From the NCBI GenBank assembly GCA_017882265.1, contig JADGPW010000109.1, forward strand, positions 1 to 64,000: a stretch of 64,000 bases of DNA. The letters are read 5' to 3'. The stretch comes from Chitinophagaceae bacterium (lineage in GTDB: Bacteria; Bacteroidota; Bacteroidia; Chitinophagales; Chitinophagaceae). Below the pieces are notes generated by a model. That model searched no databases, was not told the origin of the DNA, and saw only the letters and a list, made by a program, of their open reading frames with translations. The first letter of the stretch is position 1, and every line of letters starts with the position of its first letter. Positions 31,436 through 40,067 of this stretch are shown here, in pieces. The position numbers and the translations under genes are program-made.

Positions 31436-32077
31436 ATGAAAAAGATCTTTTTACCTGTTTTATTCACGATGGGTTTTTCAGCTTATTCAGCCGCGCAGGC
31501 CTATGAAGGCACTATCGAATACGATAAGAAAAAGCAACAGGCCATCATGATCGATTATTCGTATCCTCCGGAAGCCGTGGAAAATGCCATTGTGCAGAAA
31601 CTGGGGAGACAGGGTTTTAAAGCCAAAGAGGAAAAGGGATTTTTGAATAAGGACAAGGGTTTCCTGGTATTTAAAAATATCTATGTTACAGATATCAGCA
31701 ACGACAGGATGGATTATATCATTAAAGTGGAACGAAAAAGCCGGAAAGAAAATGACGAATCCGTCCTTTATATGATCATAAATAAGAATGGGGAGAACAT
31801 TCTTGAAAGAATGGATGCTGATGATGCGGACCGGGCCAAATCATTCCTGAATAATATGATCCCCGATATTGATGCTTCCAGCCTTGAATTACAAATAAAG
31901 GACCAGGAAGAAACCGTGACAAAGGCGGAGAAGAAAATGAGGGGTCTCAAGGATGACCAGGTAACACTGGAAAGAAAACTGGATGATAACCAGAAAGCCC
32001 AGATGGATACCCAAAAAGATATTGACAACCAAAAACAAACCCTTGAAATGCTAAGGGGGAAGAGAAAGACTAATTAA
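31436..32077 (+). CDS. hypothetical secreted protein with C-terminal coiled coil
   Basis: 213 residues from the ATG at 31436, preceded by a TATCTTTA element at 31410. A signal peptide (IFLPVLFTMGFSAYSAAQA) is followed by a roughly 120-residue alpha/beta domain and a heptad-rich tail (LQIKDQEETVTKAEKKMRGLKDDQVTLERKLDDNQKAQMDTQKDIDNQ) of about 60 residues. It is likely periplasmic. The family is unrecognised. The gene ends 2 bp before a heptamer-repeat array. Confidence 0.6.
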   Translation: MKKIFLPVLFTMGFSAYSAAQAYEGTIEYDKKKQQAIMIDYSYPPEAVENAIVQKLGRQGFKAKEEKGFLNKDKGFLVFKNIYVTDISNDRMDYIIKVERKSRKENDESVLYMIINKNGENILERMDADDADRAKSFLNNMIPDIDASSLELQIKDQEETVTKAEKKMRGLKDDQVTLERKLDDNQKAQMDTQKDIDNQKQTLEMLRGKRKTN

Positions 32078-32078
32078 T

Positions 32079-32194
32079 AGACAATTGACAATAGGCAATA
32101 AGCAATAGACAGAAATCAAAAAATTTGTTCTAATTGCCCATTGTCTATTGTCCATTGTCCATTGTCTATTGCTCATTGTCTATTGCCCATTGTC
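32079..32194. repeat. inverted pair of 7-bp-periodic arrays
   Basis: The left arm (32079-32112) repeats CAATAGR-type heptamers. The right arm (32133-32194) repeats the complement, ATTGTCY/ATTGCCC, about nine times. It fills the gap between two convergent genes and could fold into a long imperfect hairpin that serves as a terminator. Confidence 0.75.
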
Positions 32195-33250: not shown

Positions 33251-33660
33251 TTGAGGATGTAATTTACAATTTACTTTTTGGGTTCCCGGATGCTAAATAG
33301 TATAACAATTAGATAAGCTTGAAAGTGAACTCCAGGGTGATAAAGACTTATGCTTTTACTACTTGATTCTATATTCAATTTTCAAGTACAACCTTAATAA
33401 TTTATTGAAATTATCAGTAGGGTAGGGGAGGAGAAAGTTAATTACGATATCCCGGTGATATCCCGGCCTATATTAAAGGTATATTAGAGATATATTAGAG
33501 GTATATCCATGTTATACGGCAGATGTATCCATCGATAACGGCTTTATAATCCCTGGCCTGAAGAAATCAACCCCTGCCAATGCCATTCCTGGATTACTCC
33601 TTCTTTAAGGGTTCACTTAGGGACAAATACTAATGTAATGAGAACACAATCTGAAACAGA
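33251..33660. other. 410-bp intergenic region with 11-bp tandem repeats
   Basis: Non-coding gap upstream of the peroxidase gene and downstream of the ArfB gene. It contains five or more 11-bp units at 33446-33505 and otherwise no recognisable gene. Confidence 0.5.
33446..33505. repeat. 11-bp tandem repeats
   Basis: Units of 11 bp: GATATCCCGGT, GATATCCCGGC, then TATATTAAAGG, TATATTAGAGA and TATATTAGAGG and a partial TATATCC. One extra base separates the two subtypes. The period is near one helical turn, so the ATAT tracts face the same side. Confidence 0.7.
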
Positions 33661-34065: not shown

Positions 34066-34107
34066 GTTGCTGGTTGCTGGTTACTCGTTGCTGGTAAAAA
34101 TTCCTAT

Positions 34108-34115
34108 CAAAGGTA
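34108..34115 (-). promoter_or_regulatory. TAnnTTTG promoter element of arfB (TACCTTTG)
   Basis: Read on the minus strand, it matches the Bacteroidota -7 consensus and lies 42 bp upstream of the arfB ATG. The expected leader is made mostly of the heptamer array. Confidence 0.45.
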
Positions 34116-34136
34116 GCATCGTTATATGATTGAAAC

Positions 34137-34144
34137 TATCTTTA
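34137..34144 (+). promoter_or_regulatory. TAnnTTT-type promoter element of dtd (TATCTTTA)
   Basis: It lies 34 bp upstream of the dtd ATG. The predicted transcript would start at or near the first base of the four-unit heptamer array, so the leader would consist almost only of repeats. Confidence 0.4.
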
Positions 34145-34178
34145 TAAGGTAACCAGCAACCAACAACTAGCAACCAGT

Positions 34179-38807: not shown

Positions 38808-38866
38808 AGTGTCAGACATCGTGAAAGCGTCTATAACGTGTCAGACCCCCTGAAGGTGTCAGACAC
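38808..38866. repeat. three GTGTCAGAC repeats between convergent genes
   Basis: Copies at 38809, 38838 and 38856 in the 60-bp gap after glyS; the last reads GTGTCAGACAC, itself a palindrome. It resembles a REP-type element. Confidence 0.6.
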
Positions 38867-39320: not shown

Positions 39321-39463
39321 AATGCTGGTATTTTAGTAAAAGGGTGAATATATAAATTTTAGAATTTATTTCCTCTCTTTTGATTGGGAACAAATGACAA
39401 TTACGGCTGGGTAAGCTGCATCTTTTTTTAAATAAAGAGAACATTTTCATGCCTGGCTCCTGC

Positions 39464-39496
39464 CTACCTAGTACCTAAAAAGCTCCAGAAAAGCCC
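39464..39496. repeat. 33-bp direct repeat, copy 1
   Basis: Reads CTACCTAGTACCTAAAAAG followed by CTCCAGAAAAGCCC. The second copy is at 39739-39772 with about four differences. Each copy is followed by a set of interleaved inverted repeats. Confidence 0.7.
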
Positions 39497-39531
39497 TCAT
39501 TACCAAAATTTCAACCCCACTCACCTGCCAT

Positions 39532-39631
39532 AAACCCTTCTCCCTACCCGGGCTATACCCTCTATCCAGTTAGTCCACTACACAGTGGACTTTGTGGATA
39601 GAGGTAGTGGACTAACTAGGGAGAGGGGTTT
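39532..39631. repeat. 100-bp nested/interleaved inverted repeats
   Basis: Outer arms 39532-39546 and 39617-39631 (15 bp, one wobble) enclose CTCTATCCA (39560-39568), GTTAGTCCACTAC (39569-39581), TGGATAGAG (39595-39603) and GTAGTGGACTAAC (39604-39616). The inner arms pair in the order B-C-B'-C', the topology of a pseudoknot. AGTCCACT/AGTGGACT offers an alternative hairpin. Confidence 0.75.
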
Positions 39632-39651
39632 TTGGAACAAGATGCTGTATT

Positions 39652-39710
39652 CTGGATACTGGATGCTTGCGATACTAAACTGAATAGCCGGAGTTCTATC
39701 CAGTATCCAG
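39652..39710. repeat. inverted heptamer arms CTGGATACTGGAT / ATCCAGTATCCAG
   Basis: Perfect 13-bp arms at 39652-39664 and 39698-39710, each built of 7-bp units; the right arm continues as ATCTGGC, ATCTAGT and ACCTACC into the next direct repeat. Confidence 0.7.
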
Positions 39711-39738
39711 CATCTGGCATCTAGTACCTACCTCCACC

Positions 39739-39841
39739 CTACCAAGTACCTAAAAAGTTCGAGAAAAGCCCCAGACTCCTCTCACAATCCTCCCACTGCT
39801 GTGAGAGGATAAGACATGAGTAAGACAACAGTGGGAGAAAA
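39739..39841. repeat. 33-bp direct repeat copy 2 with interleaved inverted repeats
   Basis: The direct repeat (39739-39772) is followed by TCCTCTCAC (39777-39785), CTCCCACTGCTGT (39790-39802), GTGAGAGGA (39801-39809) and ACAACAGTGGGAG. The arms again interleave as F-G-F'-G', mirroring the first set although the sequences differ. Confidence 0.7.
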
Positions 39842-39966
39842 ATGCGGATTGTTGCAAATACTGCGGATTTCGCGGACAAATTTGGAAACGGGTAATTGGC
39901 AGCCCCATATTTGTTTTAAAGGCAATGCGGGGTTCCTATTATTATGATATGAATCAGTGCGTTGCC

Positions 39967-39978
39967 TGAACTAGGTCA
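39967..39978. promoter_or_regulatory. weak FNR-like site TGAACTAGGTCA
   Basis: The right half (GTCA) fits, the left half (TGAA) deviates by one base from TGAY. It lies about 95 bp upstream of the ATG at 40068, at the spacing seen for the stronger sites. Confidence 0.25.
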
Positions 39979-40067
39979 ACTGGAATAATTGTATATGGTT
40001 CTAATTTTCAACTCTTTTTGATCCTGTCAAAATCAACCAATATTATTATTTACCGAAATAAATAAAG

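What the first reader, a model, noticed from the sequence alone, without database searches (positions are those of the whole stretch)
39464..39841. Duplicated intergenic element with interleaved (pseudoknot-type) inverted repeats
Two 33-bp direct repeats are each followed by inverted arms that interleave as B-C-B'-C' and F-G-F'-G'. The sequences of the arms differ between copies but the topology is the same. The first set is enclosed by 15-bp outer arms. Shared architecture with different sequence suggests selection on structure, as in a structured RNA or a mobile palindromic element.
Basis: seen in the sequence. Interest (0 to 1): 0.65.

Follow-up and report, generated by a model that had tools for sequence, protein, structure and literature searches.

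The report
Dispersed mosaic palindrome, not a pseudoknot
This is a patchwork of three scattered repeat modules between two genes; its first module is a 102-base hairpin repeat present about 14 times in this bacterium, with distant cousins in two related genera that are built from 11-base units, so it is a real new repeat family but probably not a pseudoknotted RNA machine.

Summary
Window 39464-39885 is a mosaic in a 747-bp intergenic region. Module 1 (39532-39633) is a 102-bp hairpin with 14 strong copies in this 4-Mb genome, all intergenic beside unrelated genes. Module 2 is a 7-nt-periodic hairpin of a type found elsewhere in the family. Module 3 (the F-G-F'-G' part) recurs at 5-6 places.

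Across module-1 copies the nested hairpin covaries strongly (96% of cells paired, 8 of 21 pairs with double changes). The interleaved pairing is kept less well (85%); it arises because the right arm holds a 22-nt tandem copy of one hairpin segment.

Relatives occur in only 2 of 102 other genera sampled. There the same centre, AGTCCACT-N4-AGTGGACT, is flanked by arms of 11-nt units (lag-11 z = 12.6). Empty sites in sister species point to insertion. Loops inverted between copies suggest that replication template switching, not only RNA selection, keeps the arms matched.

Best reading: a non-autonomous, dispersed palindromic (REP/MITE-like) mosaic with no known partner enzyme. The 11-nt modular class appears undescribed. 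Transcription and function are untested.

The parts
39321..40067 (.). Intergenic region between divergent genes (DUF1569 protein on -, NAD(P)/Fe-S oxidoreductase on +) that holds the whole mosaic
   Evidence: ORFs; Pfam PF07606 and Pyr_redox_2/Fer4_20; no TTTG/TANNTTTG promoter match inside
39464..39496 (+). First 33-bp direct repeat (upstream partial duplicate of the start of module 3)
   Evidence: 90% identical to 39741-39771 over 31 nt
39509..39531 (+). Left extension (TTCAACCCC..CTGCC) shared by about 7 of the core copies
   Evidence: alignments
39532..39633 (+). Module 1: 102-bp palindromic core repeat, family A
   Evidence: 14 strong places in own genome; fold z = -9.9
39532..39546 (+). 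Outer left arm (AAACCCTTCTCCCTA), pairs with 39617-39631
39559..39579 (+). Inner left arm: B (39559-39568) and AGTCCACT (39572-39579)
   Evidence: 8 of 21 pairs of this stem have changes on both sides among 14 copies
39584..39604 (+). Inner right arm: AGTGGACT (39584-39591) and B' (39595-39604)
39604..39617 (+).
   Evidence: family D5; interleaved pairing 85.2% of cells
39617..39631 (+). Outer right arm, runs into a T-tract
39637..39740 (+). Module 2: 7-nt-periodic (GATGCTG/GATACTG) hairpin, arms 39640-39658 and 39697-39715
   Evidence: similar heptad DNA supplies most of the hits in 20 of 396 family genomes
39739..39771 (+). Second 33-bp direct repeat, start of module 3
39741..39885 (+). Module 3: F-G-F'-G' arms plus GCGGATT..GCGGATTTCGCGG block, dispersed separately
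   Evidence: own-genome matches at C194, C253, C166, C279, C13

Best explanation
The feature is a mosaic of three independently dispersed, non-coding intergenic repeats. Module 1, the striking part, belongs to a family of non-autonomous palindromic repeats that spread by insertion or duplication into intergenic DNA. The repeat can fold as one long, imperfect nested hairpin in single-stranded DNA. The arms of such hairpins stay complementary, and the loops flip, through template switching between arms during replication, perhaps together with selection. The interleaved B-C-B'-C' pattern arises because one 22-nt unit of the right arm is tandemly repeated, so the C arm has two possible partners. 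Shown here: dispersal, covariation, the 22-nt duplication and, for related elements in a sister genus, the 11-nt units and empty sites. Inferred: template switching as the maintenance mechanism, a trans-acting mobilising activity, and absence of an essential RNA function.
For: 14 strong copies beside unrelated genes. Nested-stem covariation: score 0.252, 0 of 500 shuffles as high, slid versions 0.07 or less. The related genera g42 and g91 have the same centre, AGTCCACT-N4-AGTGGACT: 8 of 396 genomes including the own one, reversed-pattern control 1 genome. Their arms are made of 11-nt units: lag-11 z = 12.6, lag-22 z = 12.5. Empty sites: the mnmG locus is empty in G138 and filled in G295 and G255; another locus has 12 bp in G041 against about 330 bp in G255. 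The D-family element has reproducible ends. Loop inversion between same-orientation copies: ACAC/GTGT in family A, GATTTC/GAAATC in family D, a reported footprint of template switching (PMC8794818, PMC8604942).
Against: No target-site duplication or sharp single boundary was found for family A; different copies carry different extensions. No partner transposase was identified. One orthologous element is unchanged over 115 bp between two species while its flanks differ at 35 of 564 positions (Fisher p = 0.002), which hints at purifying selection rather than pure selfishness. Lag-11 itself is not raised in the family-A core; its link to the 11-nt class rests on the centre motif, the 22-nt repeat and adjacent 11-nt arrays in three copies. 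The four-nt loop inversion in family A is weak evidence on its own, because short loops coincide easily.
Confidence: 0.6

Rival explanations
1. It is a structured regulatory RNA (5' leader, sRNA or pseudoknot) whose fold is under selection.
For: Strong fold; covariation, with some left in the interleaved pairing too (0.155 against 0.102 shuffled); a related element conserved better than its flanks; 8 of 15 related elements with both neighbours known lie between divergent genes, i.e. upstream of starts.
Against: Neighbouring genes are unrelated and orientations mixed; no Rfam match; no Bacteroidota-type promoter match in the window region; the reverse strand scores well too, as expected of DNA palindromes; compensatory changes have a mutational explanation; the interleaved pairing is less conserved than the nested one.
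Confidence: 0.16
2. It is a bidirectional intrinsic transcription terminator family (AAAACC..hairpin..GGTTTTT).
For: A-tract and T-tract flank the outer arms in most copies.
Against: The window copy, L015 and L020 lie between divergent genes, where no terminator is needed, and only one copy looks convergent (read by eye); internal loops make it unlike a simple terminator.
Confidence: 0.08
3. It is a protein-binding DNA array: an oligomeric protein recognises 11-bp (about one helical turn) units around a dyad centre, for regulation or chromosome organisation.
For: The same 11-nt period in families with different unit sequences, with almost none at 10 or 12 nt; exact centre motif kept in three genera.
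Against: No candidate protein; unit sequences differ widely between families; the own-genome core lacks a raised lag-11 signal.
Confidence: 0.13

Closest known systems
REP / BIME elements with RAYT (TnpA-REP) transposases
   Same: Dispersed, intergenic, palindromic, sub-families with alternative complementary stem residues, mosaic grouping
   Different: REPs are 20-40 bp with a GTAG or CGTC tag at one end (PMC3733652); this core is 102 bp, has no conserved tag, and the only two Y1 transposases found in the genome resemble subclass 1.2, which is not linked to REPs (PMC6006769)
MITEs and enterobacterial RU/ERIC-type small mobile sequences (e.g. PMC2229807, PMC2759123)
   Same: About 100-300 bp, non-coding, inverted outer arms, intergenic; related elements are present or absent at orthologous loci
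   Different: No target-site duplication or parental IS with matching ends found here
Heptanucleotide direct repeats (e.g. TAACTGA, PMC4679880)
   Same: Short-unit intergenic arrays; module 2 of the mosaic is 7-nt periodic
   Different: The elements related to module 1 have an 11-nt unit and a palindromic centre; no report of an 11-nt class was found in the library
Quasipalindromes maintained by template switching (PMC8794818, PMC8604942)
   Same: Arm homogenisation and loop inversion
   Different: Described as a mutation process, not as a dispersed repeat family

Membership tests
REP/RAYT elements | 20-40 bp stem-loop with unpaired GTAG or CGTC tag | tested here: not met
   102-bp core; GTAG occurs at 39604-39607 inside the arm and is lost (GGAG) in L010, L019, L020, L021
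REP/RAYT elements | Cognate RAYT gene in the genome or flanked by the repeat | tested here: not met
   Two Y1_Tnp genes only, subclass-1.2-like motifs, no core copy beside either; genome about 90% complete, so a missed gene is possible
REP/RAYT elements | Dispersed intergenic palindrome in many copies | tested here: met
MITE | Terminal inverted repeats and short non-coding body | tested here: met
   15-bp outer arms, 102 bp, intergenic
MITE | Target-site duplication and sharp ends | tested here: inconclusive
   No clear duplication; copies have different extensions
MITE | Parental IS sharing the ends | tested here: inconclusive
   DNA search of the own genome found only short copies; a full IS census was not possible
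Structured non-coding RNA (Rfam-type) | Match to a described family | tested here: not met
   0 matches in the window at gathering score
Structured non-coding RNA (Rfam-type) | Transcription | not testable with these tools
   No RNA-seq available
H-type pseudoknot | Interleaved stems conserved across homologues | tested here: inconclusive
   The interleaved pairing is unpaired in 1-7 of 14 copies at eight of its 14 pairs; 85.2% of cells paired against 80.1% shuffled, clearly below the nested stem at 96.3%. Its residual covariation is what a tandem copy of the nested arm would show

The most novel reading that the evidence does not exclude
Several hairpin families of different sequence in these genera are built on the same 11-nt unit around a dyad centre. 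They would then be one machinery-defined class: either phased binding sites of an unknown oligomeric protein, or products of a dedicated hairpin-copying mobile system that replaces arm sequences while keeping the architecture, as at the mnmG locus where two sister species carry different but fully paired stems.
Probability: 0.2. Interest if true: 0.7.

Novelty: new variant of a known kind. Interest (0 to 1): 0.42.

Why it matters
It shows that 'same structure, different sequence' is not by itself proof of RNA selection: here copies also show flipped loops and whole-arm replacement, as expected of template switching. It also adds a repeat class with an 11-nt unit next to the known 7-nt class. 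Empty and filled sites in sister species make its spread testable.

Tried and rejected
Pseudoknot as the conserved fold: disfavoured by pair counts. Rfam family: none. RAYT-linked REP: no RAYT, no tag. Phage, plasmid or viral carriage: no match. A genome contigs pattern scan was too loose and returned four unrelated contigs. Riboswitch or leader of one gene family: neighbours unrelated. Integron attC or telomere-resolution site: considered from general knowledge only, not tested, set aside because copies are dispersed singly. G-T against A-C mismatch counts as a test of RNA selection: 10 against 3, 7 against 3 and 1 against 2 in the three families, too few and not independent. Promoter motif scan: nothing. 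Literature searches for an 11-bp or Chitinophagaceae repeat class found nothing matching; only open-licence papers are held.

Full report
Observation. The first set (39526-39640) folds with -66.2 kcal/mol against a shuffle mean of -33.5 (z = -9.9). No Rfam family matches anywhere in the window. The region is a 747-bp intergenic stretch between divergent genes.

What it is made of. A search of the window's own genome (4.02 Mb, 293 contigs) shows three modules with separate copies. Module 1, 39532-39633, is a 102-bp repeat with 14 strong places plus two weak relatives; two of the 14 (C277 and C72) may be strain variants of one locus, being 95% identical over 400 bp. Module 2, about 39637-39740, is a hairpin of 7-nt units; similar heptad DNA accounts for most of the hits in 20 of 396 genomes of the same family, and the window holds two other heptad inverted arrays. 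Module 3, 39741-39885, has matches at C194, C253, C166, C279 and C13. Long composites of all three occur three times (window, C194, C253). The 'same topology in two copies' therefore joins two unrelated modules.

Which fold is conserved. On an alignment of 14 module-1 copies the nested inner stem forms standard pairs in 96.3% of cells, has 8 of 21 pairs with changes on both sides, and a covariation score of 0.252 (shuffle mean 0.092, 0 of 500 as high; slid controls 0.07 or less). The interleaved C:C'' pairing forms in 85.2% of cells (80.1% shuffled), has 3 such pairs and a score of 0.155 (shuffle mean 0.102), so it keeps some signal but clearly less. The second partner C'' lies in a 22-nt tandem copy of the inner right arm (39584-39604 and 39606-39626, 71% identical, family D5), which explains both the interleaving and its residual covariation. 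For module 3, the G:G' pairing can still form in other copies, in a changed register, while F:F' is lost or mismatched in some (by eye only).

Relatives. The model finds nothing in 40 near relatives taken one per genus, and the genus has only this species. Among 396 family genomes, weaker matches occur only in two other genera, g42 and g91 (3 of 103 genera counting the own one). The centre AGTCCACT-N4-AGTGGACT occurs 13 times in the own genome, 1-4 times in each of seven g42/g91 genomes, and nowhere else; the reversed-pattern control hits one genome. In g42/g91 the centre is followed, reading outward, by 2-nt spacers and units of exactly 11 nt (consensus about NNNCGAAGNAG): mean identity at lag 11 is 0.413 against 0.279 shuffled (z = 12.6), at lag 22 z = 12.5, the other tested lags at most z = 4.2. 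The own-genome core can be laid out in the same register, but its lag-11 identity is not raised (0.251) and its lag-22 identity is (0.383). Three own copies carry adjacent 11-nt arrays on the right (GTTTCAGTAGG), two of them found again by a blind scan.

A wider 11-nt class. Of the 16 hairpins with 20 or more net pairs in 397 kb of g42 and 377 kb of own DNA, 11 are either family-A cores or 11-nt-periodic hairpins of other sequence. Blind scans found 13 period-11 arrays in 530 kb of own DNA (3 of them in a 306-kb, less selected subset), 3 in 397 kb of g42, none in 200 kb of another genus and none in Markov sequence; in the own DNA periods 10 and 12 gave 0 and 1. Part of the own sample was chosen because it held core copies, so its rate is not unbiased.

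Mobility. At the mnmG locus of g42, G138 has no insert while G295 and G255 have one of about 250 nt; the stems of the two filled sites differ in sequence yet both pair fully. A second locus has 12 bp in G041 and about 330 bp in G255, and six copies of this D family share recognisable left and right ends. No target duplication could be read. A related element at the secA/atpG locus is unchanged over 115 bp between two species whose flanks there differ at 35 of 564 positions (p = 0.002), so some constraint is possible.

Mechanism. Compensatory changes usually argue for RNA selection, but template switching between hairpin arms also produces them in one step, and one of its footprints is an inverted loop (PMC8794818, PMC8604942). 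Same-orientation copies here show ACAC against GTGT (family A) and GATTTC against GAAATC (family D). The family-A case is weak because the loop is only four nt. I therefore favour a DNA-level explanation, with RNA selection not excluded.

Classification. It behaves like a REP, MITE or small mobile repeat but fails the REP definition (no 20-40 bp size, no conserved GTAG/CGTC tag, no RAYT found), and the MITE test is incomplete. I call it a new variant of a known kind. The organism is taken to be a Bacteroidota member, probably Chitinophagaceae, by inference from gene content and repeat types; no named record was found.

Noticed in passing
window 32076-32194 and 34070-34177: Two further inverted arrays built of 7-nt units (CAATAGA-type and CTGGTTG-type).
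   Followed up: no
window 38809-38860: Two copies of a GTGTCAGAC..TGAAGGTGTC repeat (0.01 expected by chance) just upstream of the mosaic.
   Followed up: no
window 33468-33522: A period-11 array (TATATTAGAGG units) within the window.
   Followed up: no
L223 about 7020, L228 about 10441 (own genome): Long non-palindromic 11-nt arrays with a conserved half (NATTGNC) and a variable half.
   Followed up: partly
L251 / L195 locus across g42 species: Intergenic insertion hot spot: 12 bp in G041, about 310-330 bp in G255, about 1 kb in G138, about 1.5 kb in G207.
   Followed up: partly
L024, L025: Two Y1 (IS200-like) transposase genes that resemble the poorly understood subclass 1.2 of PMC6006769.
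   Followed up: partly
L009 about 2000-2150: The module 3 copy is followed by a GGAGGCGCTGAGG..CTCTGCGTCTCC inverted repeat of a type often seen in environmental Bacteroidota (recalled, not tested).
   Followed up: no
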